Below are positions 16,216-64,000 of a stretch of DNA of 64,000 bases, piece after piece. The stretch spans positions 92,605 to 156,604 of the forward strand of contig JBBELK010001393.1 in NCBI GenBank assembly GCA_037783545.1, read 5' to 3'. Each line of letters starts with the position of its first letter. Positions within the stretch are counted from its first letter, which is position 1. The translations under genes and the position numbers were made by a program. Source of the stretch: Henricia sp. BOLD:AAB3569 (Eukaryota; Echinodermata; Asteroidea; Spinulosida; Echinasteridae). The notes beneath the pieces were generated by a model. It was not told the origin of the DNA. It searched no databases and worked only from the letters and a program-made list of their open reading frames with translations.

Positions 16216-16404
16216 AGCGCACATATCTATCCTGCAAGATACTCATGGCGCTTTACACATTATGTCCGACTCCAAATCAACCAAGTACTCAAGCAAGCCA
16301 AGCAAACCAGACCTAACTACTCAAGGCAAGAACTGTCAGCACTCCAAGCCCTACGCCAAGACCGATCCATATATACCCATCCTTCCCGTAGACATGGACA
16401 AAGC

Positions 16405-25123: not shown

Positions 25124-25672
25124 GTAACCACGTAGCCGAGCTCCGTTTTCCATAAACTCTGAAATTTCTCGGCCATTTCCCAGCGAAAATCTGTCCATTT
25201 TGCATGACAAGTGCGGAATATATACAGTTTGGAGCATGCAAAATTTGAAGTTCGTTGGAAAATTCCTTGATTTCCAAACTTGCCGGCATTTGGGACACAC
25301 TTTGACCAAATTCCCGTCACAATCTGGGGTGATTCAACGGCCGTACAAATGTACACCAGCGCAGCGCAGGGTGTCCCAACAGCCACGGTTAGGAGAGTAA
25401 CCACGTAGCCGAGCTCCGTTTTCCCTACATCCTTAAATTTCTCTGCCATTTCCAAGCGAAAATCTGTCAATTTTGCATGACAAGTGCGGAATATATACAG
25501 TTTGGAGCATGCAAAATTTGAAGTTCGTTGGAAAATTCCTTGATTTCCAAATTTGCCGGCATTTGGGACACACTTTGACCAAATTCCCGTCACAATCTGG
25601 GGCGAGTCAACGGCCGTCCAAAGGTACACCTGGGCAGCGCAGGGTGTCCCAACAGCCACGGTTAGGGGAGTA

Positions 25673-27308
25673 ACCACGTAGCCGAGCTCCGTATTCCCTA
25701 CATCCTTAAATTTCTCCACCATTTCCCAGCGAAAATCTGTCAATCTTGCATGACAAGTGCAGAATATATACAGTTTGGAGCATGCAAAATTTGAAGTTCG
25801 TTCGAAAATTCCTTGATTTCCAAATTTGCCGGCATTTGGGACACACTTTGACCAAATTCCCGTCACAATCTGGGGCGAGTCAACGGCCGTCCAAAGGTAC
25901 ACCTGCGCAGCGCAGGGTGTCCCAACAGCCACGGTTAGGGGAGTAACCACGTAGCCGAGCTCCGTTTTCCCTACATCCTTAAATTTCTCTGCCATTTCCC
26001 AGCGAAAATCTGTCAATTTTGCATGACAAGTGCGGAATATATACAGTTTGGAGCATGCAAAATTTGAAGTTCGTTGGAAAATTCCTTGATTTCCAAATTT
26101 GCCGGCATTTGAGACACACTTTGACCAAATTCCCGTCACAACCTGGGGCGAGTCAACGGCCGTCCAAAGGTACACCTGCGCAGCGCAGGGTGTCCCAACA
26201 GCCACGGTTAGGGGAGTAACCACGTAGCCGAGCTCCGTTTTCCCTACATCCTTAAATTTATCTGCCATTTCCCAGCGAAAATCTGTCAATTTTGCATGAC
26301 AAGTGCGGAATATATACAGTTTGGAGCATGCACAATTTGCAGTTCGTTGGAAAATTCCTTGATTTCCAAATTTGCCGGCATTTGGGACACACTTTGACCA
26401 AATTCCCGTCACAATCTGGGGCGAGTCAACGGCCGTCCAAAGGTACACCTGGGCAGCGCAGGGTGTCCCAACAGCCACGGTTAGGGGAGTAACCACGTAG
26501 CCGAGCTCCGTTTTCCCTACATCCTTAAATTTCTCTGCCATTTCCCAGCGAAAATCTGTCAATTTTGCATGACAAGTGCAGAATATATACAGTTTGGAGC
26601 ATGCAAAATTTGAAGTTCGTTCGAAAATTCCTTGATTTCCAAATTTGCCGGCATTTGGGACACACTTTGACCAAATTCCCGTCACAATCTGGGGCGAGTC
26701 AACGGCCGTCCAAAGGTACACCTGCGCAGCGCAGGGTGTCCCAACAGCCACGGTTAGGGGAGTAACACGTAGCCGAGCTCCGTTTTCCCTACATCCTTAA
26801 ATTTCTCTGCCATTTCCCAGCGAAAATCTGTCAATTTTGCATGACAAGTGTGGAATATATACAGTTTGGAGCATGCAAAATTTGAAGTTCGTTGGAAAAT
26901 TCCTTGATTTCCAAATTTGCCGGCATTTGAGACACACTTTGACCAAATTCCCGTCACAACCTGGGGCGAGTCAACGGCCGTCCAAAGGTACACCTGCGCA
27001 GCGCAGGGTGTCCCAACAGCCACGGTTAGGGGAGTAACCACGTAGCCGAGCTCCGTTTTCCCTACATCCTTAAATTTCTCTGCCATTTCCCAGCGAAAAT
27101 CTGTCAATTTTGCATGACAAGTGCGGAATATATACAGTTTGGAGCATGCACAATTTGCAGTTCGTTGGAAAATTCCTTGATTTCCAAATTTGCCGGCATT
27201 TGGGACACACTTTGACCAAATTCCCGTCACAATCTGGGGTGAGTCAACGGCCGTCCAAAGGTACTCCTGCGCAGCGCAGGGTGTCCCAACAGCCACGGTT
27301 AGGGGTGT
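25673..27308 (-). repeat. Trimeric higher-order repeat (819 bp), two copies
   Basis: Monomer variants recur with a three-monomer offset. The GTGCAGAATATA plus TTCGTTCGAAAATT variant is at about 25757 and 26576. The GCATTTGAGACACAC variant is at about 26105 and 26924. The CATGCACAATTTGCAG variant is at about 26328 and 27146. The second copy is one base shorter because of AGTAACACG at about 26760, which closes the long frame there. Confidence 0.75.
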
Positions 27309-28202
27309 AACCACGTAGCCGAGCTCCGTTTTCCCTACATCCTTAAATTTCTCTGCCATTTCCTAGCGAAAATCTGTCAATTTTGCATGACAAGTGCGGA
27401 ATATATACAGTTTGGAGCATGCAAAATTTGAAGTTCGTTGGAAAAATTCCTTGATTTCCAAATTTGCCGGCATTTGGGAAACACTTTGACCACATTCCCG
27501 TCACAATCTGGGGCGAGTCAACGGCCGTCCAAAGGTACACCTGCGCAGCGCAGGGTGTCCCAACAGCCACGGTTAGGGGAGTAACCACGTAGCCGAGCTC
27601 CGTTTTCCCTAAACTCTGAAATTTCTCGGCCATTTCCAAGCGAAAATCTGTCAATTTTGCATGACAAGTGCGGAATATATACAGTTTGGAGCATGCAAAA
27701 TTTGACGTTCGTTGGAAAATTCCTTGATTTCCAAATTTGCCGGCATTTGGGTCACACTTTGACCAAATTCCCGTCACAATCTGGGGCGAGTCAACGGCCG
27801 TACAAATGTACACCAGCGCAGCGCAGGGTGTCCCAACAGCCACGGTTAGGGGAGTAACCACGTAGCCGAGCTCCGTTTTCCCTAAACTCTGACATTTCTC
27901 GGCCATTTCCCAGCGAAAATCTGTCAATTTTGCATGACAAGTGCGGAATATATACAGTTTGGAGCATGCAAAATTTGAAGTTCGTTGGAAAATTCCTTGA
28001 TTTCCAAATTTGCCGGCATTTGGGACACACTTTGACCAAATTCCCGTCACAATCTGGGGCGAGTCAACGGCCGTCCAAAGGTACACCTGCGCAGCGCAGG
28101 GTGTCCCAACAGCCACGGTTAGGGGAGTAACCACGTAGCCGAGCTCCGTTTTCCCTACATCCTTACATTTCTCTGCCATTTCCCAGCGAAAATCTGTCAA
28201 TT

Positions 28203-29840
28203 TTGCATGACAAGTGCGGAATATATACAGTTTGGAGCATGCAAAATTTGAAGTTCGTTGGAAAATTCCTTGATTTCCAAATTTGCCGGCATTTGGGACA
28301 CACTTTGACCAAATTCCCGTCACAATCTGGGGCGAGTCAACGGCCGTCCAAAGGTACACCTGCGCAGCGCAGGGTGTCCCAACAGCCACGGTTAGGGGAG
28401 TAACCACGTAGCCGAGCTCCGTTTTCCCTACATCCTTAAATTTCTCTGCCATTTCACAGCGAAAATCTGTCAATTTTGCATGACAAGTGCGGAATATATA
28501 CAGTTTGGAGCTTTCCAAATTTGAAGTTCGTTGGAAAATTCCTTGATTTCCAAATTTGCCGGCATTTGGGTCACACTTTGACCAAATTCCCGTCACAATC
28601 TGGGGCGAGTCAACGGCCGTACAAATGTACACCAGCGCAGCGCAGGGTGTCCCAACAGCCACGGTTAGGGGAGTAACCACGTAGCCGAGCTCCGTTTTCC
28701 CTAAACTCTGAAATTTCTCGGCCATTTCCCAGCGAAAATCTGTCAATTTTGCATGACAAGTGCGGAATATATACAGTTTGGAGCATGCACAATTTGAAGT
28801 TCGTTGGAAAATTCCTTGATTTCTAAATTTGCCTGCATTTGGGACACACTTTGACCAAATTCCCGTCACAATCTGGGGTGAGTCAACGGCCGTACAAATG
28901 TACACCAGCGCAGCGCAGGGTGTCCCAACAGCCACGGTTAGGGAGTAACCACGTAGCCGAGCTCCGTTTTCCCTAAACTCTGACATTTCTCGGCCATTTC
29001 CCAGCGAAAATCTGTCAATTTTGCATGACAAGTGCGGAATATATACAGTTTGGAGCATGCAAAATTTGAAGTTCGTTGGAAAATTCCTTGATTTCTAAAT
29101 TTGCCTGCATTTGGGACACACTTTGACCAAATTCCCGTCACAATCTGGGGTGAGTCAACGGCCGTACAAATGTACACCAGCGCAGCGCAGGGTGTCCCAA
29201 CAGCCACGGTTAGGGGAGTAACCACGTAGCCGAGCTCCGTTTTCCCTAAACTCTGAAATTTCTCGGCCATTTCCCAGCGAAAATCTGTCAATTTTGCATG
29301 ACAAGTGCGGAATATATACAGTTTGGAGCATGCAAAATTTGAAGTTCGTTGGAAAATTCCTTGATTTCCAAATTTGCCGGCATTTGGGACACACTTTGAC
29401 CAAATTCCCGTCACAATCTGGGGCGAGTCAACGGCCGTCCAAAGGTACACCTGCGCAGCGCAGGGTGTCCCAACAGCCACGGTTAGGGGAGTAACCACGT
29501 AGCCGAGCTCCGTTTTCCCTACATCCTTAAATTTCTCTGCCATTTCACAGCGAAAATCTGTCAATTTTGCATGACAAGTGCGGAATATATACAGTTTGGA
29601 GCTTTCCAAATTTGAAGTTCGTTGGAAAATTCCTTGATTTCCAAATTTGCCGGCATTTGGGTCACACTTTGACCAAATTCCCGTCACAATCTGGGGCGAG
29701 TCAACGGCCGTACAAATGTACACCAGCGCAGCGCAGGGTGTCCCAACAGCCACGGTTAGGGGAGTAACCACGTAGCCGAGCTCCGTTTTCCCTAAACTCT
29801 GAAATTTCTCGGCCATTTCCCAGCGAAAATCTGTCAATTT
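28203..29840 (-). repeat. Tetramer-offset duplication (1,091 bp)
   Basis: A rare monomer with GAGCTTTCCAAATTTG (in place of GAGCATGCAAAATTTG) occurs at about 28509 and 29600, each preceded by matching neighbours. The offset is four monomers minus one base; the missing base is the TAGGGAGTAACC deletion near 28940. Confidence 0.6.
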
Positions 29841-32800
29841 TGCATGACAAGTGCGGAATATATACAGTTTGGAGCATGCAAAATTTGAAGTTCGTTGGAA
29901 AATTCCTTGATTTCCAAATTTGCCGGCATTTGGGACACACTTTGACCAAATTCCCGTCACAATCTGGGGTGAGTCAACGGCCGTCCAAATGTACACCTGC
30001 GCAGCGCAGGGTGTCCCAACAGCCACGGTTAGGGGAGTAACCACGTAGCCGAGCTCCGTTTTCCCTACATCCTTAAATTTCTCTGCCATTTCGCAGTGAA
30101 AATCTGTCAATTTTGCATGACAAGTGCGGAATATATACAGTTTGGAGCATGCAAAATTTGACGTTCGTTGGAAAATTCCTTGATTTCCAAATTTGCCGGC
30201 ATTTGGGTCACACTTTGACCAAATTCCCGTCACAATCTGGGGCGAGTCAACGGCCGTACAAATGTACACCAGCGCAGCGCAGGGTGTCCCAACAGCCACG
30301 GTTAGGGGAGTAACCACGTAGCCGAGCTCCGTTTTCCCTAAACTCTGACATTTCTCGGCCATTTCCCAGCGAAAATCTGTCAATTTTGCATGACAAGTGC
30401 GGAATATATACAGTTTGGAGCATGCAAAATTTGAAATTCGTTGGAAAATTCCTTGATTTCCAAATTTGCCTGCATTTGGGACACACTTTGACCAAATTCC
30501 CGTCACAATCTGGGGTGAGTCAACGGCCGTACAAATGTACACCAGCGCAGCGAAGGGTGTCCCAACAGCCACGGTTAGGGGAGTAACCACGTAGCCGAGC
30601 TCCGTTTTCCCTAAACTCTGACATTTCTCGGCCATTTCCCAGCGAAAATCTGTCAATTTTGCATGACAAGTGCGGAATATATACAGTTTGGAGCATGCAA
30701 AATTTGAAGTTCGTTGGAAAATTCCTTGATTTCCAAATTTGCCGGCATTTGGGACACACTTTGACCAAATTCCCGTCACAATCTGGGACGAGTCAACGGC
30801 CGTCCAAAGGTACACCTGCGCAGCGCAGGGTGTCCCAACAGCCACGGTTAGGGGAGTAACCACATAGCCGAGCCCCGTTTTCCCTACATCCTTAAATTTC
30901 TCTGCCATTTCCCAGCGAAAATCTGTCAATTTTGCATGACAAGTGCGGAATATATACAGTTTGGAGCATGCAAAATTTGAAGTTCGTTGGAAAATTCCTT
31001 GATTTCCAAATTTGCCGGCATTTGGGTCACACTTTGACCAAATTCCCGTCACAATCTGGGGCGAGTCAACGGCCGTACAAATGTACACTAGTGCAGCGCA
31101 GGGTGTCCCAACAGCCACGGTTAGGGGAGTAACCACGTAGCCGAGCTCCGTTTTCCCTAAACTCTGAAATTTCTCGGCCATTTCCCAGCGAAAATCTGTC
31201 AATTTTGCATGACAAGTGCGGAATATATACAGTTTATTAGAGCATGCAAAATTTGAAGTCCGTTGGAAAATTCGTTGATTTCAAAATTTGCCGGCAATTG
31301 GGACACACTTTGACCAAATTCCCGTCACAATCTGGGGCGAGTCAACGGCCGTCCAAAGGTACACTTGCGCAGCGCAGGGTGTCCCAACAGCCACGGTTAG
31401 GGGAGTAACCACATAGCCGAGCTCCGTTTTCCCTACATCCTTACATTTCTCTGCCATTTCCCAGCGAAAATCTGTCAATTTTGCATGACAAGTGCGGAAT
31501 ATATACAGTTTGGAGCATGCAAAATTTGAAGTCCATTGGAAAATTCGTTGATTTCCAAATTTGCCGGCATTTGGGACACACTTTGACCAAATTCCCGTCA
31601 CAATCTGGGGCGAGTCAACGGCCGTCCAAAGGTACACTTGCGCAGCGCAGGGTGTCCCAACAGCCACGGTTAGGGGAGTAACCACGTAGCCGAGCTCCGT
31701 TTTCCCTAAACTCTGAAATTTCTCGGCCATTTCCCAGCGAAAATCTGTCAATTTTGCATGACAAGTGCGGAATATATACAGTTTGGAGCATGCAAAATTT
31801 GAAGTCCATTGGAAAATTCGTTGATTTCCAAATTTGCCGGCATTTGGGACACACTTTGACCAAATTCCCGTCACAATCTGGGGCGAGTCAACGGCCGTCC
31901 AAAGGTACACTTGCGCAGCGCAGGGTGTCCCAACAGCCACGGTTAGGGGAGTAACCACGTAGCCGAGCTCCGTTTTCCCTACATCCTTACATTTCTCTGC
32001 CATTTCCCAGCGAAAATCTGTCAATTTTGCATGACAAGTGCGGAATATATACAGTTTGGAGCATGCAAAATTTGAAGTTCGTTGGAAAATTCCTTGATTT
32101 CCAAATTTGCCGGCATTTGGGACACACTTTGACCAAATTCCCGTCACAATCTGGGGTGAGTCAACGGCCGTCCAAATGTACACCTGCGCAGCGCAGGGTG
32201 TCCCAACAGCCACGGTTAGGGGAGTAACCACGTAGCCGAGCTCCGTTTTCCCTACATCCTTAAATTTATCTACCATTTCCCAGCGAAAATCTGTCAATTT
32301 TGCATGACAAGTGCTGAATATATACAGTTTGGAGCATGCAAGATTTGCAGTTCGTTGGAAAATTCCTTGATTTCCAAATTTGCCGGCATTTGGGACACAC
32401 TTTGACCAAATTCCCGTCACAATCTGGGGCGAGTCAACGGCCGTACAAATGTACACCAGCGCAGCGCAGGGTGTCCCAACAGCCACGGTTAGGGAAGTAA
32501 CCACGTAGCCGAGCTCCGTTTTCCCTAAACTCTGAAATTTCTCGGCCATTTCCCAGCGAAAATCTGTCAATTTTGCATGACAAGTGCGGAATATATACAG
32601 TTTAGAGCATGCAAAATTTGAAGTCCGTTGGAAAATTCGCTGATTTCCAAATTTGCCGGCATTTGGGACACACTTTGACCAAATTCCCGTCACAATCTGG
32701 GGCGAGTCAACGGCCGTCCAAAGGTACACTTGCGCAGCGCAGGGTGTCCCAACAGCCACGGTTAGGGGAGTAACCACGTAGCCGAGCTCCGTTTTCCCTA

Positions 32801-33159
32801 CATCCTTACATTTCTCTGCCATTTCCCAGCGAAAATCTGTCAATTTTGCATGACAAGTGCGGAATATATACAGTTTAGAGCATGCAAAATTTGAAGTTCG
32901 TTGGAAAATTCCTTGATTTCCAAATTTGCCGGCATTTGGGACACACTTTGACCAAATTCCCGTCACAATCTGGGGTGAGTCAACGGCCGTCCAAATGTAC
33001 ACCTGCGCAGCGCAGGGTGTCCCAACAGCCACGGTTAGGGGAGTAACCACGTAGCCGAGCTCCGTTTTCCCTACATCCTTAAATTTCTCTGCCATTTCGC
33101 AGCGAAAATCTGTCAATTTTGCATGACAAGTGCGGAATATATACAGTTTGGAGCATGCA

Positions 33160-33190
33160 AAATTTGAAGTCCGGCATTTGGGTCACACTT
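33160..33190. other. 31-bp deletion inside one monomer
   Basis: AATTTGAAGT is followed directly by CCGGCATTTGGG, removing the 31 bases that contain TTCGTTGGAAAATTCC. The neighbouring GCATGACA anchors are 242 bp apart instead of 273. It is the only partial monomer of this size I noticed in the A block. Confidence 0.8.
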
Positions 33191-35544
33191 TGACCAAATT
33201 CCCGTCACAATCTGGGGCGAGTCAACGGCCGTACAAATGTACACCAGCGCAGCGCAGGGTGTCCCAACAGCCACGGTTAGGGAAGTAACCACGTAGCCGA
33301 GCTCCGTTTTCCCTAAACTCTGAAATTTCTCGGCCATTTCCCAGCGAAAATCTGTCAATTTTGCATGACAAGTGCGGAATATATACAGTTTGGAGCATGC
33401 AAAATTTGAAGTTCGTTTGAAAATTCCTTGATTTCCAAATTTGCCGGCATTTGGGACACACTTTGACCAAATTCCCGTCACAATCTGGGGCGAGTCAACG
33501 GCCGTCCAAAGGTACACCTGCGCAGCGCAGGGTGTCCCAACAGCCACGGTTATGGGAGTAACCACGTAGCCGAGCTCCGTTTTCCCTACATCCTTAAATT
33601 TCTCTGCCATTTCCCAGCGAAAATCTGTCAATTTTACATGACAAGTGCGGAATATATACAGTTAGGAGCATGCAAAATTTGAAGTTCGTTGGAAAATTCC
33701 TTGATTTCCAAATTTGCCGGCATTTGGGACACACTTTGACCAAATTCCCGTCACAATCTGGGGTGAGTCAACGGCCGTCCAAATGTACACCTGCGCAGCG
33801 CAGGGTGTCCCAACAGCCACGATTAGGGGAGTAACCACGTAGCCGAGCTCCGTTTTCCCTACATCCTTAAATTTATCTACCATTTCCCAGCGAAAATCTG
33901 TCAATTTTGCATGACAAGTGCTGAATATATACAGTTTGGAGCATGCAAGATTTGCAGTTCGTTGGAAGATTCCTTGATTTCCAAATTTGCCGGCATTTGG
34001 GACACACTTTGACCAAATTCCCGTCACAATCTGGGGCGAGTCAACGGCCGTACAAATGTACACCAGCGCAGCGCAGGGTGTCCCAACAGCCACGGTTAGG
34101 GGAGTAACCACGTAGCCGAGCTCCGTTTTCCCTAAACTCTGAAATTTCTCGGCCATTTCCCAGCGAAAATCTGTCAATTTTGCATGACAAGTGCGGAATA
34201 TATACAGTTTGGAGCATGCAAAATTTGAAGTTCGTTGGAAAATTCCTTGATTTCCAAATTTGCTGGCATTTGGGACACACTTTGACCAAATTCCCGTCAC
34301 AATCTGGGGCGAGTCAACGGCCGTCCAAAGGTACACTTGCGCAGCGCAGGGTGTCCCAACAGCCACGGTTAGGGGAGTAACCACGTAGCCGAGCTCCGTT
34401 TTCTCTACATCCTTACATTTCTCTGCCATTTCCCAGCGAAAATCTGTCAATTTTGCATGACAAGTGCGGAATATATACAGTTTGGAGCATGCAAAATTTG
34501 AAGTCCGTTGGAAAATTCCTTGATTTCCAAATTTGCTGGCATTTGGGACACACTTTGACCAAATTCCCGTCACAATCTGGGGCGAGTCAACGGCCGTCCA
34601 AAGGTACACTTGCGCAGCGCAGGGTGTCCCAACAGCCACGGTTAAGGGAGTAACCACGTAGCCGAGCTCCGTTTTCTCTACATCCTTACATTTTTCTGCC
34701 ATTTCCCAGCGAAAATCTGTCAATTTTGCATGACAAGTGCGGAATATATACAGTTAGGAGCATGCAAAATTTGAAGTTCGTTGGAAAATTCCTTGATTTC
34801 CAAATTTGCCGGCATTTGGGACACACTTTGACCAAATTCCCGTCACAATCTGGGGTGAGTCAACGGCCGTCCAAATGTACACCTGCGCAGCGCAGGGTGT
34901 CCCAACAGCCACGGTTAGGGGAGTAACCACGTAGCCGAGCTCCGTTTTCCCTACATCCTTAAATTTATCTACCATTTCCCAGCGAAAATCTGTCAATTTT
35001 GCATGACAAGTGCTGAATATATACAGTTTGGAGCATGCAAGATTTGCAGTTCGTTGGAAAATTCCTTGATTTCCAAATTTGCCGGCATTTGGGACACACT
35101 TTGACCAAATTCCCGTCACAATCTGGGGCGAGTCAACGGCCGTACAAATGTACACCAGCGCAGCGCAGGGTGTCCCAACAGCCACGGTTAGGGGAGTAAC
35201 CACGTAGCCGAGCTCCGTTTTCCCTAAACTCTGAAATTTCTCGGCCATTTCCCAGCGAAAATCTGTCAATTTTGCATGACAAGTGCGGAATATATACAGT
35301 TTGGAGCATGCAAAATTTGAAGTCCGTTGGAAAATTCCTTGATTTCCAAATTTGCCGGCATTTGGGACACACTTTGACCAAATTCCCGTCACAATCTGGG
35401 GTGAGTCAACGGCCGTCCAAATGTACACCTGCGCAGCGCAGGGTGTCCCAACAGCCACGGTTAGGGGAGTAACCACGTAGCCGAGCTCCGTTTTCTCTAC
35501 ATCCTTACATTTCTCTGCCATTTCCCAGCGAAAATCTGTCAATT

Positions 35545-38500
35545 TTGCATGACAAGTGCGGAATATATACAGTTAGGAGCATGCAAAATTTGAAGTTCGT
35601 TGGAAAATTCCTTGATTTCCAAATTTGCCGGCATTTGGGACACACTTTGACCAAATTCCCGTCACAATCTGGGGCGAGTCAACGGCCGTCCAAATGTACA
35701 CCTGCGCAGCGCAGGGTGTCCCAACAGCCACGGTTAGGGGAGTAACCCCGTAGCCGAGCTCCGTTTTCCCTACATCCTTAAATTTCTCTGCCATTTCGCA
35801 GCGAAAATCTGTCAATTTTGCATGACAAGTGCGGAATATATACAGTTTGGAACATGCAAAATTTGAAGTTCGTTGGAAAATTCCTTGATTTCCAAATTTG
35901 CCGGCATTTGGGACACACTTTGACCAAATTCCCGTCACAATCTGGGGCGAGTCAACGGCCGTCCAATAGGTACACCTGCGCAGCGCAGGGTGTCCCAACA
36001 GCCACGGTTAGGGGAGTAACCACGTAGCCGAGCTCCGTTTTCCCTACATCCTTAAATTTCTCTGCCATTTCCCAGCGAAAATCTGTCAATTTTGCATGAC
36101 AAGTGCGGAATATATACAGTTTGGAGCATGCAAGATTTGCAGTTCGTTGGAAGATTCCTTGATTTCCAAATTTGTCGGCATTTGGGACGCACTTTGACCA
36201 AATTCCCGTCACAATCTGGGGCGAGTCAACGGCCGTCCAAAGGTAAACCTGCGCAGCGCAGGGTGTCCCAACAGCCACGGTTAGGGGAGTAACCACATAG
36301 CCGAGCTCCGTTTTCCCTACATCCTTAAATTTCTCTGCCATTTCCCGGCGAAAATCTGTCAATTTTGCATGACAAGTGCGGAATATATACAGTTAGGAGC
36401 ATGCAAAATTTGAAGTTCGTTGGAAAATTCCTTGATTTCCAAATTTGCTGGCATTTGGGACACACTTTGACCAAATTCCCGTCACAATCTGGGGCGAGTC
36501 AACGGCCGTCCAAAGGTACACTTGCGCAGCGCAGGGTGTCCCAACAGCCACGGTTAGGGGAGTAACCACGTAGCCGAGCTCCGTTTTCTCTACATCCTTA
36601 CATTTCTCTGCCATTTCCCAGCGAAAATCTGTCAATTTTGCATGACAAGTGCGGAATATATACAGTTAGGAGCATGCAAAATTTGAAGTTCGTTGGAAAA
36701 TTCCTTGATTTCCAAATTTGCCGGCATTTGGGACACACTTTGACCAAATTCCCGTCACAATCTGGGGTGAGTCAACGGCCGTCCAAATGTACACCTGCGC
36801 AGCGCAGGGTGTCCCAACAGCCACGGTTAGGGGAGTAACCCCGTAGCCGAGCTCCGTTTTCCCTACATCCTTAAATTTCTCTGCCATTTCGCAGCGAAAA
36901 TCTGTCAATTTTGCATGACAAGTGCGGAATATATACAGTTTGGAACATGCAAAATTTGAAGTTCGTTGGAAAATTCCTTGATTTCCAAATTTGCCGGCAT
37001 TTGGGACACACTTTGACCAAATTCCCGTCACAATCTGGGGCGAGTCAACGGCCGTCCAATAGGTACACCTGCGCAGCGCAGGGTGTCCCAACAGCCACGG
37101 TTAGGGGAGTAACCACGTAGCCCAGCTCCGTTTTCCCTACATCCTTAAATTTCTCTGCCATTTCCCAGCGAAAATCTGTCAATTTTGCATGACAAGTGCG
37201 GAATATATACAGTTTGGAGCATGCAAGATTTGCAGTTCGTTGGAAAATTCCTTGATTTCCAAATTTGCCGGCATTTGGGACGCACTTTGACCAAATTCCC
37301 GTCACAATCTGGGGCGAGTCAACGGCCGTCCAAAGGTAAACCTGCGCAGCGCAGGGTGTCCCAACAGCCAAGGTTAGGGGAGTAACCACATAGCCGAGCT
37401 CCGTTTTCCCTACATCCTTAAATTTCTCTGCCATTTCCCGGCGAAAATCTGTCAATTTTGCATGACAAGTGCGGAATATATACAGTTAGGAGCATGCAAA
37501 ATTTGAAGTTCGTTGGAAAATTCCTTGATTTCCAAATTTGCTGGCATTTGGGACACACTTTGACCAAATTCCCGTCACAATCTGGGGCGAGTCAACGGCC
37601 GTCCAAAGGTACACTTGCGCAGCGCAGGGTGTCCCAACAGCCACGGTTAGGGGAGTAACCACGTAGCCGAGCTCCGTTTTCTCTACATCCTTACATTTCT
37701 CTGCCATTTCCCAGCGAAAATCTGTCAATTTTGCATGACAAGTGCGGAATATATACAGTTAGGAGCATGCAAAATTTGAAGTTCGTTGGAAAATTCCTTG
37801 ATTTCCAAATTTGCCGGCATTTGGGACACACTTTGACCAAATTCCCGTCACAATCTGGGGTGAGTCAACGGCCGTCCAAATGTACACCTGCGCAGCGCAG
37901 GGTGTCCCAACAGCCACGGTTAGGGGAGTAACCACGTAGCCGAGCTCCGTTTTCTCTACATCCTTACATTTCTCTGCCATTTCCCAGCGAAAATCTGTCA
38001 ATTTTGCATGACAAGTGCGGATTATATACAGTTTGGAGCATGCAAAATTTGAAGTCCGTTGGAAAATTCCTTGATTTCCAAATTTGCTGGCATTTGGGAC
38101 ACACTTTGACCAAATTCCCGTCACAATCTGGGGCGAGTCAACGGCCGTCCAAAGGTACACTTGCGCAGCGCAGGGTGTCCCAACAGCCACGGTTAGGGGA
38201 GTAACCACGTAGCCGAGCTCCGTTTTCTCTACATCCTTACATTTTTCTGCCATTTCCCAGCGAAAATCTGTCAATTTTGCATGACAAGTGCGGAATATAT
38301 ACAGTTTGGAGCATGCAAGATTTGCAGTTCGTTGGAAAATTCCTTGATTTCCAAATTTGCCGGCATTTGGGACGCACTTTGACCAAATTCCCGTCACAAT
38401 CTGGGGCGAGTCAACGGCCGTCCAAAGGTAAACCTGCGCAGCGCAGGGTGTCCCAACAGCCAAGGTTAGGGGAGTAACCACATAGCCGAGCTCCGTTTTC

Positions 38501-51814: not shown

Positions 51815-53057
51815 ACCAAATTCCCGTCACAATCTGGGGCGAGTCAACTGCCGTCCAAAGGTACACCTGCGCAGCGCAGGGTGTCCCAACAGCCACGGTT
51901 AGGGGAGTAACCACATAGCCGAGCTCCGTTTTCCCTACATCCTTACATTTCTCTGCCATTTCCAGGCGAAAATCTGTCAATTTTGAATGACAAGTGCGGA
52001 ATATATACAGTTTGGAGCATGCAAAATTTGAAGTTCGTTGGAAAATTCCTTGATTTCCAAATTTGCCGGCATTTGGGACACACTTTGACCAAATTCCCGT
52101 CACAATCTGGGGTGAGTCAACGGCCGTCCAAATGTACACCTGCGCAGCGCAGGGTGTCCCAACAGCCACGGTTAGGGGAGTAACCCCGTAGCCGAGCTCC
52201 GTTTTCCCTACATCCTTAAATTTCTCTGTCATTTCGCAGCGAAAATCTGTCAATTTTGCATGACAAGTGCGGAATATATACAGTTTGGAGCATGCAAGAT
52301 TTGCAGTTCGTTGGAAAATTCCTTGATTTCCAAATTTGCCGGCATTTGGGACACACTTTGACCAAATTCCCGTCACAATCTGGGGCGAGTCAACTGCCGT
52401 CCAAAGGTACACCTGCGCAGCGCAGGGTGTCCCAACAGCCACGGTTACGGGAGTAACCACATAGCCGAGCTCCGTTTTCCCTACATCCTTAAATTTCTCT
52501 GCCATTTCCCGGCGAAAATCTGTCAATTTTGCATGACAAGTGCGGAATATATACAGTTTGGAGCATGCAAGATTTGCAGTTCGTTCGAAAATTCCTTGAT
52601 TTCCTAATTTGCCGGCATTTGGGACACACTTTGACCAAATTCCCGTCACAATCTGGGGTGAGTCAACGGCCGTACAAATGTACACCAGCGCGGCGCATGC
52701 GCAGGGTGTCCCAACAGCCACGATTAGGGGAATAACCACGCAGCCGAGCTCCGTTTTCCCTAAACTCTGAAATTTCTCCGTCATTTCCCAGCGAAAATCT
52801 GTCAATTTTGCATGACAAGTGCGGAATATATACAGTTTGGAGCATGCAAAATTTGAAGTTGGTTGGAAAATTCCTTGATTTCCAAATTTGCCGGCATTTG
52901 GGACACACTTTGACCTAATTCCCGTCACAATCTGGGGTGAGTCAACGGCCGTACAAATGTACACCAGCGCGGCGCAGGGTGTCCCAACAGCCACGGTTAG
53001 GGGAATAACCACGCAGCCGAGCTCCGTTTTCCCTAAACTCTGAAATTTCTCCGTCAT
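49191..53057 (-). other. 1,288-codon open frame across satellite, probably not a gene
   Basis: The longest of a series of minus-strand open frames formed because both monomer lengths are multiples of three and one frame has no stop. The conceptual product is about 14 repeats of 91 or 93 residues with no recognisable domain, signal peptide or membrane segment. The first Met is an ordinary internal codon of the monomer. Neighbouring frames (25090-26751, 28938-31202, 31281-33116, 41856-43463, 55125-56780, 62138-63985) are the same frame interrupted by indels. Differences between subfamilies A and B are mostly amino-acid changing, which argues against selection on a protein. Confidence 0.85.
51815..52660 (-). 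repeat. Subfamily A block embedded in B, second
   Basis: Three monomers with A diagnostics: TTTTGAATGACAAG, GTAACCCCGTAG, CATGCAAGATTTGC and TTCGTTCGAAAATT. The last of these, with its junction back to B, matches the junctions at about 46050 and 48250. Confidence 0.8.
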
Positions 53058-56000
53058 TTACCAGCGAAAATCTGTCAATTTTGCATGACAAGTGCGGAAT
53101 ATATACAGTTTGGAGCATGCAAAATTTGAAGTTGGTTGGAAAATTCCATGATTTCCAAATTTGCCGGCATTTGGGACACACTTTGACCTAATTCCCGTCA
53201 CAATCTGGGGTGAGTCAACGGCCGTACAAATGTACACCAGCGCGGCGCAGGGTGTCCCAACAGCCACGGTTAGGGGAATAACCACGCAGCCGAGCTCCGT
53301 TTTCCCTAAACTCTGAAATTTCTCCGTCATTTCTCAGCGAAAATCTGTCAATTTTGCATGACAAGTGCGGAATATATACAGTTTGGAGCATGCAAAATTT
53401 GAAGTTGGTTGGAAAATTCCTTGATTTCCAAATTTGCCGGCATTTGGGACACACTTTGACCTAATTCCCGTCACAATCTGGGGTGAGTCAACGGCCGTAC
53501 AAATGTACACCAGCGCGGCGCAGGGGTGTCCCAACAGCCACGGTTAGGGGAATAACCACGCAGCCGAGCTCCGTTTTCCCTAAACTCTGAAATTTCTCCG
53601 TCATTTCCCAGCGAAAATCTGTCAATTTTGCATGACAAGTGCGGAATATATACAGTTTGGAGCATGCAAAATTTGAAGTTGGTTGGAAAATTCCTTGATT
53701 TCCAAATTTGCCGGCATTTGGGACACACTTTGACCTAATTCCCGTCACAATCTGGGGTGAGTCAACGGCCGTACAAATGTACACCAGCGCGGCGCATGCG
53801 CAGGGTGTCCAACAGCCACGGTTAGGGGAATAACCACGCAGCCGAGCTCCGTTTTCCCTAAACTCTGAAATTTCTCCGTCATTTCCCAGCGAAAATCTGT
53901 CAATTTTGCATGACAAGTGCGGAATACATACAGTTTGGAGCATGCAAAATTTGAAGTTGGTTGAAAAATTCCTTGATTTCCAAATTTGCCGGCATTTGGG
54001 ACACACTTTGACCTAATTCCCGTCACAATCTGGGGTGAGTCAACGGCCGTACAAATGTACACCAGCGCGGCGCAGGGTGTCCCAACAGCCACGGTTAGGG
54101 GAATAACCACGCAGCCGAGCTCCGTTTTCCCTAAACTCTGAAATTTCTCCGTCATTTCCCAGCGAAATCTGTCAATTTTGCATGACAAGTGCGGAATATA
54201 TACAGTTTGGAGCATGCAAAATTTGAAGTTGGTTGGAAAATTCCTTGATTTCCAAATTTGCCGGCATTTGGGACACACTTTGACCTAATTCCCGTCACAA
54301 TCTTGGGTGAGTCAACGGCCGTACAAATGTACACCAGCGCGGCGCAGGGTGTCCCAACAGCCACGGTTAGGGGAATAACCACACAGCCGAGCTCCGTTTT
54401 CCCTAAACTCTGAAATTTCTCCGTCATTTCCCAGCGAAAATCTGTCAATTTTGCATGACAAGTGCGGAATATATACAGTTTGGAGCATGCAAAATTTGAA
54501 GTTGGTTGGAAAATTCCTTGATTTCCAAATTTGCCGGCATTTGGGACACACTTTGACCTAATTCCCGTCACAATCTGGGTGAGTCAACGGCCGTACAAAT
54601 GTACACCAGCGCGGCGCATGCGCAGGGTGTCCCAACAGCCACGGTTAGGGGAATAACCACGCAGCCGAGCTCCGTTTTCCCTAAACTCTGAAATTTCTCC
54701 GTCATTTCCCAGCGAAAATCTGTCAATTTTGCATGACAAGTGCGGAATATATACAGTTTGGAGCATGCACAATTTGAAGTTGGTTGGAAAATTCCTTGAT
54801 TTCCAAATTTGCCGGCATTTGGGACACACTTTGACCTAATTCCCGTCACAATCTGGGGTGAGTCAACGGCCGTACAAATGTACACCAGCGCGGCGCATGC
54901 GCAGGGTGTCCCAACAGCCACGGTTAGGGGAATAACCACGCAGCCGAGCTCCGTTTTCCCTAAACTCTGAAATTTCTCCGTCATTTCCCAGCGAAAAATC
55001 TGTCAATTTTGCATGACAAGTGCGGAATATATACAGTTTGGAGCATGCAAAATTTGAAGTTGGTTGGAAAATTCCTTGATTTCCAAATTTGCCGGCATTG
55101 GGACACACTTTGACCTAATTCCCGTCACAATCTGGGTGAGTCAACGGCCGTACAAATGTACACCAGCGCGGCGCATGCGCAGGGTGTCCCAACAGCCACG
55201 GTTAGGGGAATAACCACGCAGCCGAGCTCCGTTTTCCCTAAACTCTGAAATTTCTCCGTCATTTCCCAGCGAAAATCTGTCAATTTTGCATGACAAGTGC
55301 GGAATATATACAGTTTGGAGCATGCAAAATTTGAAGTTGGTTGGAAAATTCCTTGATTTCCAAATTTGCCGGCATTTGGGACACACTTTGACCTAATTCC
55401 CGTCACAATCTGGGGTGAGTCAACGGCCGTACAAATGTACACCAGCGCGGCGCATGCGTAGGATGTCCCAACAGCCACGGTTAGGGGAATAACCACGCAG
55501 CCGAGCTCCGTTTTCCCTAAACTCTGAAATTTCTCCGTCATTTCCCAGCGAAAATCTGTCAATTTTGCATGACAAGTGCGGAATATATACAGTTTGGAGC
55601 ATGCAAAATTTGAAGTTGGTTGGAAAATTCCTTGATTTCCAAATTTGCCGGCATTTGGGACACACTTTGACCTAATTCCCGTCACAATCTGGGGTGAGTC
55701 AACGGCCGTACAAATGTACACCAGCGCGGCGCATGCGCAGGGTGTCCCAACAGCCACGGTTAGGGGAATAACCACGCAGCCGAGTTCCGTTTTCCCTAAA
55801 CTCTGAAATTTCTCCGTCATTTCCCAGCGAAAATCTGTCAATTTTGCATGACAAGTGCGGAATATATACAGTTTGGAGCATGCAAAATTTGAAGTTGGTT
55901 GGAAAATTCCTTGATTTCCAAATTTGCCGGCATTTGGGACACACTTTGACCTAATTCCCGTCACAATCTGGGGTGAGTCAACGGCCGTACAAATGTACAC

Positions 56001-59000
56001 CAGCGCGGCGCATGCGTAGGATGTCCCAACAGCCACGGTTAGGGGAATAACCACGCAGCCGAGCTCCGTTTTCCCTAAACTCTGAAATTTCTCCGTCATT
56101 TCCCAGCGAAAATCTGTCAATTTTGCATGACAAGTGCGGAATATATACAGTTTGGAGCATGCAAAATTTGAAGTTGGTTGGAAAATTCCTTGATTTCCAA
56201 ATTTGCCGGCATTTGGGACACACTTTGACCTAATTCCCGTCACAATCTGGGGTGAGTCAACGGCCGTACAAATGTACACCAGCGCGGCGCATGCGCAGGG
56301 TGTCCCAACAGCCACGGTTAGGGGAATAACCACGCAGCCGAGCTCCGTTTTCCCTAAACTCTGAAATTTCTCCGTCATTTCCCAGCGAAAATCTGTCAAT
56401 TTTGCATGACAAGTGCGGAATATATACAGTTTGGAGCATGCACAATTTGAAGTTGGTTGGAAAATTCCTTGATTTCCAAATTTGCCGGCATTTGGGACAC
56501 ACTTTGACCTAATTCCCGTCACAATCTGGGGTGAGTCAACGGCCGTACAAATGTACACCAGCGCGGCGCATGCGCAGGGTGTCCCAACAGCCACGGTTAG
56601 GGGAATAACCACGCAGCCGAGCTCCGTTTTCCCTAAACTCTGAAATTTCTCCGTCATTTCCCAGCAAAAATCTGTCAATTTTGCATGACAAGTGCGGAAT
56701 ATATACAGTTTGGAGCATGCAAAATTTGAAGTTGTTGGAAAATTCCTTGATTTCCAAATTTGCCGGCATTTGGGACACACTTTGACCTAATTCCCGTCAC
56801 AATCTGGGGTGAGTCAACGGCCGTACAAATGTACACCAGCGCGGCGCATGCGCAGGGTGTCCCAACAGCCACGGTTAGGGGAATAACCACGCAGCCGAGC
56901 TCCGTTTTCCCTAAACTCTGAAATTTCTCCGTCATTTCCCAGCGAAAATCTGTCAATTTTGCATGACAAGTGCGGAATATATACAGTTTGGAGCATGCAA
57001 AATTTGAAGTTGGTTGGAAAATTCCTTGATTTCCAAATTTGCCGGCATTTGGGACACACTTTGACCTAATTCCCGTCACAATCTGGGGTGAGTCAACGGC
57101 CGTACAAATGTACACCAGCGCGGCGCATGCGTAGGATGTCCCAACAGCCACGGTTAGGGGAATAACCACGCAGCCGAGCTCCGTTTTCCCTAAACTCTGA
57201 AATTTCTCCGTCATTTCCCAGCGAAAATCTGTCAATTTTGCATGACAAGTGCGGAATATATACAGTTTGGAGCATGCAAAATTTGAAGTTGGTTGGAAAA
57301 TTCCTTGATTTCCAAATTTGCCGGCATTTGGGACACACTTTGACCTAATTCCCGTCACAATCTGGGGTGAGTCAACGGCCGTACAAATGTACACCAGCGC
57401 GGCGCATGCGCAGGGTGTCCCAACAGCCACGGTTAGGGAATAACCACGCAGCCGAGTTCCGTTTTCCCTAAACTCTGAAATTTCTCCGTCATTTCCCAGC
57501 GAAAATCTGTCAATTTTGCATGACAAGTGCGGAATATATACAGTTTGGAGCATGCAAAATTTGAAGTTGGTTGGAAAATTCCTTGATTTCCAAATTTGCC
57601 GGCATTTGGGACACACTTTGACCTAATTCCCGTCACAATCTGGGGTGAGTCAACGGCCGTACAAATGTACACCAGCGCGGCGCATGCGTAGGATGTCCCA
57701 ACAGCCACGGTTAGGGGAATAACCACGCAGCCGAGCTCCGTTTTCCCTAAACTCTGAAATTTCTCCGTCATTTCCCAGCGAAAATCTGTCAATTTTGCAT
57801 GACAAGTGCGGAATATATACAGTTTGGAGCATGCAAAATTTGAAGTTGGTTGGAAAATTCCTTGATTTCCAAATTTGCCGGCATTTGGGACACACTTTGA
57901 CCTAATTCCCGTCACAATCTGGGGTGAGTCAACGGCCGTACAAATGTACACCAGCGCGGCGCATGCGTAGGATGTCCCAACAGCCACGGTTAGGGGAATA
58001 ACCACGCAGCCGAGCTCCGTTTTCCCTAAACTCTGAAATTTCTCCGTCATTTCCCAGCGAAAATCTGTCAATTTTGCATGACAAGTGCGGAATATATACA
58101 GTTTGGAGCATGCAAAATTTGAAGTTGGTTGGAAAATTCCTTGATTTCCAAATTTGCCGGCATTTGGGACACACTTTGACCTAATTCCCGTCACAATCTG
58201 GGGTGAGTCAACGGCCGTACAAATGTACACCAGCGCGGCGCATGCGCAGGTGTCCCAACAGCCACGGTTAGGGGAATAACCACGCAGCCGAGTTCCGTTT
58301 TCCCTAAACTCTGAAATTTCTCCGTCATTTCCCAGCGAAAATCTGTCAATTTTGCATGACAAGTGCGGAATATATACAGTTTGGAGCATGCAAAATTTGA
58401 AGTTGGTTGGAAAATTCCTTGATTTCCAAATTTGCCGGCATTTGGGACACACTTTGACCTAATTCCCGTCACAATCTGGGGTGAGTCAACGGCCGTACAA
58501 ATGTACACCAGCGCGGCGCATGCGTAGGGTGTCCCAACAGCCACGGTTAGGGGAATAACCACGCAGCCGAGCTCCGTTTTCCCTAAACTCTGAAATTTCT
58601 CCGTCATTTCCCAGCGAAAATCTGTCAATTTTGCATGACAAGTGCGGAATATATACAGTTTGGAGCATGCAAAATTTGAAGTTGGTTGGAAAATTCCTTG
58701 ATTTCCAAATTTGCCGGCATTTGGGACACACTTTGACCTAATTCCCGTCACAATCTGGGGTGAGTCAACGGCCGTACAAATGTACACCAGCGCGGCGCAG
58801 GGTGTCCCAACAGCCACGGTTAGGGGAATAACCACGCAGCCGAGCTCCGTTTTCCCTAAACTCTGAAATTTCTCCGTCATTTCCCAGCGAAAATCTGTCA
58901 ATTTTGCATGACAAGTGCGGAATATATACAGTTTGGAGCATGCAAAATTTGAAGTTGCTTGGAAAATTCCTTGATTTCCAAATTTGCCGGCATTTGGGAC

Positions 59001-62000
59001 ACACTTTGACCTAATTCCCGTCACAATCTGGGGTGAGTCAACGGCCGTAAAAATGTACACCAGCGCGGCGCAGGGTGTCCCAACAGCCACGGTTAGGGGA
59101 ATAACCACGCAGCCGAGCTCCGTTTTCCCTAAACTCTGAAATTTCTCCGTCATTTCCCAGCGAAAATCTGTCAATTTTGCATGACAAGTGCGGAATATAT
59201 ACAGTTTGGAGCATGCAAAATTTGAAGTTGGTTGGAAAATTCCTTGATTTCCAAATTTGCCGGCATTTGGGACACACTTTGACCTAATTCCCGTCACAAT
59301 CTGGGGTGAGTGAACGGCCGTACAAATGTACACCAGCGCGCGCGCCGGGTGTCCCAACAGCCACGGTTAGGGGAATAACCACGCAGCCGAGCTCCGTTTT
59401 CCCTAAACTCTGAAATTTCTCCGTCATTTCCCAGCGAAAATCTGTCAATTTTGCATGACAAGTGCGGAATATATACAGTTTGGAGCATGCAAAATTTGAA
59501 GTTGGTTGGAAAATTCCTTGATTTCCAAATTTGCCGGCATTTGGGACACACTTTGACCTAATTCCCGTCACAATCTGGGGTGAGTCAACGGCCGTACAAA
59601 TGTACACCAGCGCGGCGCAGGGTGTCCCAACAGCCACGGTTAGGGGAATAACCACGCAGCCGAGCTCCGTTTTCCCTAAACTCTGAAATTTCTCCGTCAT
59701 TTCCCAGCGAAAATCTGTCAATTTTGCATGACAAGTGCGGAATATATACAGTTTGGAGCATGCAAAATTTGAAGTTGGTTGGAAAATTCCTTGATTTCCA
59801 AATTTGCCGGCATTTGGGACACACTTTGACCTAATTCCCGTCACAATCTGGGGTGAGTCAACGGCCGTACAAATGTACACCAGCGCGGCGCAGGGTGTCC
59901 CAACAGCCACGGTTAGGGGAATAACCACGCAGCCGAGCTCCGTTTTCCCTAAACTCTGAAATTTCTCCGTCATTTCCCAGCGAAAATCTGTCAATTTTGC
60001 ATGACAAGTGCGGAATATATACAGTTTGGAGCATGCAAAATTTGAAGTTGGTTGGAAAATTCCTTGATTTCCAAATTTGCCGGCATTTGGGACACACTTT
60101 GACCTAATTCCCGTCACAATCTGGGGTGAGTGAACGGCCGTACAAATGTACACCAGCGCGGCGCAGGGTGTCCCAACAGCCACGGTTAGGGGAATAACCA
60201 CGCAGCCGAGCTCCGTTTTCCCTAAACTCTGAAATTTCTCCGTCATTTCCCAGCGAAAATCTGTCAATTTTGCATGACAAGTGCGGAATATATACAGTTT
60301 GGAGCATGCAAAATTTGAAGTTGGTTGGAAAATTCCTTGATTTCCAAATTTGCCGGCATTTGGGACACACTTTGACCTAATTCCCGTCACAATCTGGGGT
60401 GAGTCAACGGCCGTACAAATGTACACCAGCGCGGCGCAGGGTGTCCCAACAGCCACGGTTAGGGGAATAACCACGCAGCCGAGCTCCGTTTTCCCTAAAC
60501 TCTGAAATTTCTCCGTCATTTCCCAGCGAAAATCTGTCAATTTTGCATGACAAGTGCGGAATATATACAGTTTGGAGCATGCAAAATTTGAAGTTGGTTG
60601 GAAAATTCCTTGATTTCCAAATTTGCCGGCATTTGGGACACACTTTGACCTAATTCCCGTCACAATCTGGGTGAGTCAACGGCTGTACAAATGTACACCA
60701 GCGCGGCGCATGCGTAGGATGTCCCAACAGCCACGGTTAGGGGAATAACCACGCAGCCGAGCTCCGTTTTCCCTAAACTCTGAAATTTCTCCGTCATTTC
60801 CCAGCGAAAATCTGTCAATTTTGCATGACAAGTGCGGAATATATACAGTTTGGAGCATGCAAAATTTGAAGTTGGTTGGAAAATTCCTTGATTTCCAAAT
60901 TTGCCGGCATTTGGGACACACTTTGACCTAATTCCCGTCACAATCTGGGGTGAGTCAACGGCCGTACAAATGTACACCAGCGCGGTGCAGGGTGTCCCAA
61001 CAGCCACGGTTAGGGGAATAACCACGCAGCCGAGCTCCGTTTTCCCTAAACTCTGAAATTTCTCCGTCATTTCCCAGCGAAAATCTGTCAATTTTGCATG
61101 ACAAGTGCGGAATATATACAGTTTGGAGCATGCAAAATTTGAAGTTGCTTGGAAAATTCCTTGATTTCCAAATTTGCCGGCATTTGGGACACACTTTGAC
61201 CTAATTCCCGTCACAATCTGGGGTGAGTCAACGGCCGTACAAATGTACACCAGCGCGGCGCAGGGTGTCCCAACAGCCACGGTTAGGGGAATAACCACGC
61301 AGCCGAGCTCCGTTTTCCCTAAACTCTGAAATTTCTCCGTCATTTCCCAGCGAAAATCTGTCAATTTTGCATGACAAGTGCGGAATATATACAGTTTGGA
61401 GCATGCAAAATTTGAAGTTGGTTGGAAAATTCCTTGATTTCCAAATTTGCCGGCATTTGGGACACACTTTGACCTAATTCCCGTCACAATCTGGGGTGAG
61501 TGAACGGCCGTACAAATGTACACCAGCGCGGCGCCGGGTGTCCCAACAGCCACGGTTAGGGGAATAACCACGCAGCCGAGCTCCGTTTTCCCTAAACTCT
61601 GAAATTTCTCCGTCATTTCCCAGCGAAAATCTGTCAATTTTGCATGACAAGTGCGGAATATATACAGTTTGGAGCATGCAAAATTTGAAGTTGGTTGGAA
61701 AATTCCTTGATTTCCAAATTTGCCGGCATTTGGGACACACTTTGACCTAATTCCCGTCACAATCTGGGGTGAGTCAACGGCCGTACAAATGTACACCAGC
61801 GCGGCGCAGGGTGTCCCAACAGCCACGGTTAGGGGAATAACCACGCAGCCGAGCTCCGTTTTCCCTAAACTCTGAAATTTCTCCGTCATTTCCCAGCGAA
61901 AATCTGTCAATTTTGCATGACAAGTGCGGAATATATACAGTTTGGAGCATGCAAAATTTAAAGTTGGTTGGAAAATTCCTTGATTTCCAAATTTGCCGGC

Positions 62001-64000
62001 ATTTGGGACACACTTTGACCTAATTCCCGTCACAATCTGGGGTGAGTCAACGGCCGTACAAATGTACACCAGCGCGGCGCAGGGTGTCCCAACAGCCACG
62101 GTTAGGGGAATAACCACGCAGCCGAGCTCCGTTTTCCCTAAACTCTGAATTTATCCGTCATTTCCCAGCGAAAATCTGTCAATTTTGCATGACAAGTGCG
62201 GAATATATACAGTTTGGAGCATGCAAAATTTGAAGTTGGTTGGAAAATTCCTTGATTTCCAAATTTGCCGGCATTTGGGACACACTTTGACCTAATTCCC
62301 GTCACAATCTGGGGTGAGTCGACGGCCGTACAAATGTACACCAGCGCGGCGCAGGGTGTCCCAACAGCCACGGTTAGGGGAATAACCACGCAGCCGAGCT
62401 CCGTTTTCCCTAAACTCTGAAATTTCTCCGTCATTTCCCAGCGAAAATCTGTCAATTTTGCATGACAAGTGCGGAATATATACAGTTTGGAGCATGCAAA
62501 ATTTGAAGTTGGTTGGAAAATTCCTTGATTTCCAAATTTGCCGGCATTTGGGACACACTTTGACCTAATTCCCGTCACAATCTGGGGTGAGTCAACGGCC
62601 GTACAAATGTACACCAGCGCGGCGCAGGGTGTCCCAACAGCCACGGTTAGGGGAATAACCACGCAGCCGAGCTCCGTTTTCCCTAAACTCTGAAATTTCT
62701 GCGTCATTTCCCAGCGAAAATCTGTCAATTTTGCATGACAAGTGCGGAATATATACAGTTTGGAGCATGCAAAATTTGAAGTTGGTTGGAAAATTCCTTG
62801 ATTTCCAAATTTGCCGGCATTTGGGACACACTTTGACCTAATTCCCGTCACAATCTGGGGTGAGTCAACGGCCGTACAAATGTACACCAGCGCGGCGCAG
62901 GGTGTCCCAACAGCCACGGTTAGGGGAATAACCACGCAGCCGAGCTCCGTTTTCCCTAAACTCTGAAATTTCTCCGTCATTTCCCAGCGAAAATCTGTCA
63001 ATTTTGCATGACAAGTGCGGAATATATACAGTTTGGAGCATGCAAAATTTGAAGTTGGTTGGAAAATTCCTTGATTTCCAAATTTGCCGGCATTTGGGAC
63101 ACACTTTGACCTAATTCCCGTCACAATCTGGGGTGAGTCAACGGCCGTACAAATGTACACCAGCGCGGCGCAGGGTGTCCCAACAGCCACGGTTAGGGGA
63201 ATAACCACGCAGCCGAGCTCCGTTTTCCCTAAACTCTGAAATTTCTCCGTCATTTCCCAGCGAAAATCTGTCAATTTTGCATGACAAGTGCGGAATATAT
63301 ACAGTTTGGAGCATGCAAAATTTGAAGTTGGTTGGAAAATTCCTTGATTTCCAAATTTGCCGGCATTTGGGACACACTTTGACCTAATTCCCGTCACAAT
63401 CTGGGGTGAGTCAACGGCCGTACAAATGTACACCAGCGCGGCGCAGGGTGTCCCAACAGCCACGGTTAGGGGAATAACCACGCAGCCGAGCTCCGTTTTC
63501 CCTAAACTCTGAAATTTCTCCGTCATTTCCCAGCGAAAATCTGTCAATTTTGCATGACAAGTGCGGAATATATACAGTTTGGAGCATGCAAAATTTGAAG
63601 TTGGTTGGAAAATTCCTTGATTTCCAAATTTGCCGGCATTTGGGACACACTTTGACCTAATTCCCGTCACAATCTGGGGTGAGTCAACGGCCGTACAAAT
63701 GTACACCAGCGCGGCGCATGCGCAGGGTGTCCCAACAGCCACGGTTAGGGGAATAACCACGCAGCCGAGCTCCGTTTTCCCTAAACTCTGAAATTTCTCC
63801 GTCATTTCCCAGCGAAAATCTGTCAATTTTGCATGACAAGTGCGGAATATATACAGTTTGGAGCATGCAAAATTTGAAGTTGGTTGGAAAATTCCTTGAT
63901 TTCCAAATTTGCCGGCATTTGGGACACACTTTGACCTAATTCCCGTCACAATCTGGGGTGAGTCAACGGCCGTACAAATGTACACCAGCGCGGCAGCAGG
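52661..64000 (-). repeat. Satellite block 4, subfamily B, increasingly uniform
   Basis: From 54600 to about 58500, 279-bp units dominate. From 58760 on, 273-bp units dominate. Monomers between about 62300 and 63650 are almost identical to one another. A variant pair with GTTGCTTGG (about 58955 and 61145) marks a 2,190-bp offset (eight monomers, one of them 279 bp). GAGTGAACGG, which breaks the TGAGTCA motif, is at about 59308, 60128 and 61498. Confidence 0.85.

What the first reader, a model, noticed from the sequence alone, without database searches (positions are those of the whole stretch)
25124..64000. Uninterrupted 39-kb satellite beside a single-copy neuronal gene exon
Seen: about 140 tandem 273/279-bp monomers with no transposon insertion, still running at the window edge, about 18 kb upstream of the CADPS first exon. 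Inference: this may be a pericentromeric, subtelomeric or heterochromatic block, and the CADPS promoter would lie near its border. I do not recognise the monomer.
Basis: partly seen in the sequence, partly recalled or inferred. Interest (0 to 1): 0.7.

Follow-up and report, generated by a model that had tools for sequence, protein, structure and literature searches.

The report
Edge of a major genome-wide satellite
A 39-kb stretch of repeated DNA beside a nerve-cell gene appears to be the edge of a very large non-coding satellite family that fills perhaps a seventh of this animal's assembled genome; it is a new family of a familiar kind.

Summary
142 head-to-tail monomers (273 bp, with 278/279-bp variants) fill 25123-64000 without interruption. 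They start 18.3 kb upstream of a CADPS-like exon that has one match in the assembly. The window ends exactly where its contig ends, so the array probably continues.

The array is not local. In 40 evenly numbered contigs of the same 741-Mb assembly, the superfamily lies at the midpoint of 28 and the start of 30 (0 of 500 shuffled controls). That scales to about 100-130 Mb (13-17%; rough, probably biased upward). Three length classes occur: A 273 bp (window), B about 296 bp, C 205 bp.

Local identity rises from 96% near the gene to 99% at the contig end. Three decayed monomers lie outside the border among transposon remains. Within the array there are multi-monomer duplications and recombination inside monomers.

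The minus-strand open frame shows no selection, no CENP-B box exceeds chance, and nothing indicates origin from the adjoining LINE.

Best reading: the border of a large, probably heterochromatic, satellite block maintained by unequal exchange. Whether it is centromeric, pericentromeric or subtelomeric was not testable. New member of a known kind.

The parts
25123..64000 (+). Satellite array, subfamily A: 142 head-to-tail monomers, mode 273 bp, running to the end of the contig
   Evidence: contig end
25124..45846 (+). Older, more mixed part of the array (monomers 1-76), recombined haplotypes, local identity about 96%
45847..53004 (+). Transition zone (monomers 77-102) where two variant groups alternate; monomers 77, 85 and 101 share one chimeric diagnostic pattern
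53005..64000 (+). Most homogeneous part (monomers 103-142), reaching 99% identity at the contig end
18732..18874 (+). Decayed monomer outside the array, same strand (52.9 bits)
   Evidence: best control 5.9 bits
19053..19132 (+). Decayed monomer, same strand (18.8 bits)
19230..19366 (+). Decayed monomer, same strand (16.6 bits); cores of the three lie 264 and 251 bp apart
22251..25122 (-). 5'-truncated, frame-broken L1-like LINE abutting the array, no target-site duplication found; lower boundary inferred from the (AAAC)n tail
5923..6822 (-). First coding exon of a CADPS-like gene (splice end not determined), transcribed away from the array

Best explanation
This is the outer edge of a very large non-coding satellite block. 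The repeat is subfamily A of a satellite superfamily that forms many long arrays in this genome. Shown here: tandem head-to-tail structure, genome-wide abundance, decayed copies and transposon remains at the border, higher homogeneity away from the border, multi-monomer duplications, recombination within monomers, and no coding constraint. Inferred: the array is maintained by unequal exchange and conversion, which keep the inside uniform and fail at the edge, so old monomers decay and transposons accumulate there. Inferred and untested: the block is constitutive heterochromatin, pericentromeric, centromeric or subtelomeric. No function of its own was demonstrated; its most likely effect is structural.
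For: Abundance: superfamily at 28 of 40 contig midpoints and 30 of 40 starts, 0 of 500 shuffled controls; 8 of the first 20 contigs hit at start, middle and end on one strand. Arrays on C919, C1310 and C1955 run to the first bases of their contigs, as C1393 runs to its last. Gradient: mean local identity 0.962 for monomers 1-76, 0.987 for the last 20. Border: three decayed monomers at 52.9, 18.8 and 16.6 bits, best in 21 control sequences 5.9. Exchange: four gametes at 62 of 105 site pairs, r2 falling from 0.41 within 30 bp to about 0.02 beyond 180 bp; exact repeat of 1782 bp at offset 3005; six-monomer identical run, permuted longest run at most 4 in 200. Local homogenisation: 141 of 141 window monomers have their closest relative on C1393, 55 of 57 on C919. 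Literature: PMC10048060, passages seen, says homogenisation is less efficient at array ends.
Against: The rise in identity is not smooth: it dips to 0.94-0.95 at monomers 72-101 where two variant groups mix, and the correlation with position is modest (r 0.30, reached by 15 of 300 permutations). CpG observed/expected in the array (0.91) equals that of the flank (0.93), so there is no sign of methylation decay. No chromatin, FISH or chromosome-level data were available. Closest relatives on C117, C1310 and C1955 often lie on other contigs, so homogenisation is not purely local everywhere.
Confidence: 0.85

Rival explanations
1. A dispersed euchromatic satellite: thousands of separate arrays along chromosome arms rather than a few heterochromatic blocks, as described for the Pacific oyster.
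For: The array sits 18 kb from a single-copy gene on a 157-kb contig; decayed relatives occur far inside contigs reaching beyond 1 to 2 Mb such as C141, C3, C454, C30 and C917; C117 (717 kb) has internal arrays. The oyster pattern was seen in passages of PMC10048060.
Against: In sampled contigs of 250 kb or more the superfamily lies at 0 of 6 midpoints, against 28 of 34 below 250 kb, so most sampled copies sit in satellite-rich contigs. Arrays read here are tens of kilobases long, not short.
Confidence: 0.2
2. The array codes for a long repetitive protein on the minus strand (open frame of 91 or 93 codons per monomer, up to 1288 residues).
For: 273 and 279 are multiples of three; the longest stop-free stretch is 1288 aa at 49191-53057.
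Against: Among 132 distinct variants, amino-acid changes are 88 against 92.3 expected, silent 38 against 33.5, stops 6 against 6.2: no clear constraint. 838 of 4000 resampled monomers have an open frame by chance. 272, 274 and 278-bp monomers break the frame. One monomer frame gives no Pfam match. The 1288-aa frame had seven Pfam hits, six of them with no stretch passing alone and one (PF25065, E 1.4e-18) with one; since the single monomer does not reproduce it, I read them as artefacts of repetition.
Confidence: 0.02
3. The satellite was born from the adjoining LINE, whose reading frame runs on into the first monomer.
For: One minus frame runs without a stop from the LINE into monomer 1.
Against: Similarity to human L1 ORF2 begins at residue 70, about 25126, at the array edge. 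In the genome the satellite part of a junction query (first 58 bases) matches C117, C278, C180, C62 and C1955 and stops within three bases of 25123 in the rows listed, while the LINE part has one other relative, C297 at 67% (only 40 of 951 candidates were scored).
Confidence: 0.03

Closest known systems
Satellite DNA families with subfamilies and decaying edges (alpha satellite is the recalled model)
   Same: Long head-to-tail arrays, subfamily blocks, local duplications, diverged edge copies, transposons at the border.
   Different: No constant higher-order repeat was found across the array; monomers of 205 to 296 bp; no CENP-B box above chance; no link to a centromere shown.
Pacific oyster satellites (passages of PMC10048060)
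   Same: Abundant tandem repeats, some near genes and transposons.
   Different: Here most sampled copies are in long satellite-rich contigs rather than short dispersed arrays.

Membership tests
Satellite DNA | Long uninterrupted tandem arrays of a non-coding monomer | tested here: met
Satellite DNA | High copy number in the genome | tested here: met
   28 of 40 contig midpoints, 0 of 500 controls
Satellite DNA | Concerted evolution (local homogenisation) | tested here: met
   141 of 141 window monomers nearest to their own contig
Heterochromatic (pericentromeric or subtelomeric) satellite | Location in condensed chromatin blocks | not testable with these tools
   No chromosome-level, Hi-C, histone or FISH data. 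No doubled TTAGGG or its complement in the window.
Centromeric satellite with CENP-B box | 17-bp CENP-B box (consensus recalled) | tested here: not met
   Best match 12 of 17, reached by 600 of 3000 resampled monomers
Higher-order-repeat satellite | A constant multi-monomer period through the array | tested here: not met
   Offsets of 4, 11 and 15 monomers stand out in 39-64 and runs at 8, 16 and 24 in 75-104, but no one offset throughout
LINE-derived satellite | Monomer homologous to part of the LINE | tested here: inconclusive
   No support, but no intact relative of this LINE was available to compare
Coding tandem repeat | Purifying selection on the frame | tested here: not met

The most novel reading that the evidence does not exclude
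A, B, C and the decayed copies are one ancient superfamily kept together by a shared core (common to the alignments: roughly A positions 104-145, which includes TTCGTTGGAA, a ten-base piece of the recalled CENP-B box). The core would be a binding site for a chromatin or centromere protein, so that array length and spacer turn over while the core is retained, and subfamilies A and B would be competing centromere-drive variants.
Probability: 0.12. Interest if true: 0.7.

Novelty: new member of a known kind. Interest (0 to 1): 0.42.

Why it matters
If the estimate holds, one uncharacterised satellite superfamily makes up about 13-17% of this assembly and fills most of its small contigs (28 of the 34 sampled under 250 kb have it at the midpoint). 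It would explain many of the assembly's breaks, give a probe for heterochromatin and perhaps centromeres in this species, and supply a gene-to-satellite border (window 5.9-25 kb) at which spreading of silencing could be tested.

Tried and rejected
Coding frame on the minus strand: no clear selection, open frames common by chance. CENP-B box: at chance; the site inside the shared core scores 11 of 17 by hand count. LINE origin: no support. Target-site duplication at the LINE: longest shared word 7 bases and not adjacent to the tail. DNA secondary structure: z -1.13, 27 of 200 shuffles fold as well. Uneven mutation along the monomer: p 0.08. A special core between A and B at 40-bp scale: not supported, 533 of 2000 permutations reach the best window; the spacers of A and B still align weakly (3 of 500 shuffles reach the score). 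Helical phasing of A/T words: weak, 24, 43 and 452 of 1000 shuffles for three definitions, uncorrected. Rfam and tRNA: nothing. Prokaryote, viral, phage and plasmid collections: no match, as expected for animal DNA. A note of mine called the B pattern in C1310 a dimer and gave C1955 as one continuous array; both are corrected here: B has a 296-bp period and I read its alternating scores as split hits, and C1955:20001-40000 was never fetched. The same note's 'about 25 further contigs' for one search is 27 contigs besides C1393.

The genome-wide copy count by pattern did not complete.

Full report
Observation. The array is as described. TRF gives period 273 from 25123 to the window end; 142 monomers in one orientation, the last cut. 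Lengths are mostly 273, with 279 and 278 in the right half and one 242-bp monomer at 33043. Mean identity is 95.9% to the consensus and 94.1% pairwise. Two monomers, number 30 (short) and 142 (cut), were left out of the variant and identity-bin counts below; the 424-monomer comparison left out number 142 and kept number 30.

Context. The CADPS-like exon lies on the minus strand with its ATG near 6822 and has one match in the assembly. The gene points away from the array. Between them, 8.2-18.45 kb holds three nested or adjacent inverted-repeat pairs (95, 92 and 86% identical arms), 20.6-21.3 kb a fold-back pair (98%), and 22.25-25.12 kb a truncated L1-like LINE on the minus strand. The LINE resembles human L1 ORF2 (E 1.7e-45) more than R2 (4.3e-17). 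No target-site duplication links its ends, so the junction more likely arose by rearrangement than by simple insertion into the array (inference).

Old edge. A profile of the array monomers finds three decayed copies at 18732-18874, 19053-19132 and 19230-19366, same strand as the array, with 52.9, 18.8 and 16.6 bits; the best score in 20 resampled and one reversed copy of the flank is 5.9. Their matching cores are 264 and 251 bp apart. They suggest that satellite stood here before the transposon remains, and make a misassembled junction less likely (inference).

Homogeneity. Within-bin identity is 96-97% for monomers 1-71, drops to 94-95% for 72-101 where two variant groups alternate, and climbs to 97, 98, 98 and 99% in the last four bins. 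Mean local identity is 0.962 in monomers 1-76 and 0.987 in the last 20; the correlation with position over the whole array is only 0.30, reached by 15 of 300 permutations. Monomers 77, 85 and 101 share one chimeric pattern between the two groups. Monomers 43-48 and 54-59 are identical; the longest exact repeat is 1782 bp at offset 3005. In monomers 1-76 (number 30 left out) four gametes occur at 62 of 105 site pairs, and linkage falls within about 100 bp irrespective of monomer boundaries. These are the marks of unequal exchange and conversion (inference from established satellite biology).

Genome. The window is C1393:92605-156604 of a 740,731,340-base assembly in 2104 contigs, and the contig ends at the window end. 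A two-monomer query matched 103 places on five contigs with only 22 of 2564 candidates scored. Arrays on C919, C1310 and C1955 reach the contigs' first bases. A query with the decayed region gave 47 matches, one of them itself, on 27 further contigs.

Survey. I sampled contigs numbered 50 to 2000 in steps of 50, 40 in all: start and middle of all 40, end of the 20 numbered 50, 150 and so on. BLAST against A, B, C and an unrelated 310-bp repeat gave A, B or C at 30 of 40 starts, 28 of 40 middles and 13 of 20 ends, with 0 of 500 shuffled controls. By size: middles hit in 28 of 34 contigs under 250 kb and 0 of 6 larger ones. Counting each contig with a hit middle as satellite throughout gives 127 Mb (bootstrap 91-167); the first 20 alone gave 101 Mb (47-166). 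The sample mean contig (206 kb) is below the true mean (352 kb), so small contigs are over-represented and the figure is probably too high; correcting the size mix by hand gives about 100-127 Mb. It remains a rough figure.

Subfamilies. A is 273 bp (window, and 11 of the 28 middles), B about 296 bp (16 of 28) and C 205 bp (1 of 28). A and B are about 75% identical; A and C align over A 64-155 at 79% under strict scoring and over about 21-188 under looser scoring, far above shuffles (132 against a maximum of 33). On C1310 an A array passes into a B array near 10.5 kb, same strand, so A and B share a block at least there. The decayed copies align at A 51-188, 104-152 and 104-145. A segment near A 104-145 is thus common to the alignments, but a 40-bp test between A and B does not single out any core (533 of 2000 permutations).

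Homogenisation between loci. Of 424 monomers compared, all 141 of the window's have their closest relative on C1393, 55 of 57 of C919's on C919; C117, C1310 and C1955 exchange more.

Function. No clear coding constraint, no Rfam family, no CENP-B box above chance, weak A/T phasing only. I commit to a structural reading: bulk satellite of large blocks, most likely heterochromatin, kept uniform by unequal exchange, with the window at a block border. Heterochromatin and chromosomal place are inferred.

Literature. Nine searches listed no paper recognisable from its listing as describing this satellite; only passages of PMC10048060 were read. The species is unknown to me, and no eukaryotic repeat library was available, so the claim that the family is new is limited to these searches.

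Noticed in passing
window 8224-18450: Three nested or adjacent inverted-repeat pairs: 8224-9223/17464-18450 (95%), 9295-9984/13644-14345 (92%), 14365-15186/16551-17353 (86%), probably nested transposons with long terminal inverted repeats.
   Followed up: partly
window 20592-21286: Fold-back element with 209-bp arms 98% complementary; related inverted copies at 19.66-19.86 and 21.3-21.5 kb.
   Followed up: no
window 757-1428: 1.9 direct copies of a 360-bp unit, 97% matching.
   Followed up: no
window 15747-16166: Open frame ending in a zinc-finger-like motif (CPTCGRGFLARIGLTSHLRTHR), reminiscent from memory of some LINE protein ends.
   Followed up: no
L036 (C250 start), L077 (C350 end), L039 (C550 start): An unrelated AT-rich tandem repeat of about 310 bp at the ends of three larger contigs; longer BLAST segments between them are 79-95% identical.
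   Followed up: partly
L018:5453 and L023:2351 (C1955:55453, C117:112351): On two contigs the satellite stops at nearly the same monomer position against the same element end, on opposite sides of the monomer site; the element's open frames match no convincing Pfam or PHROG family.
   Followed up: partly
C117:77655-108741 (L019-L022): Eight blocks of about 1.1 kb of satellite A with the same boundaries, separated by other sequence and with starts 2.4-6.3 kb apart, suggesting a larger composite repeat.
   Followed up: partly
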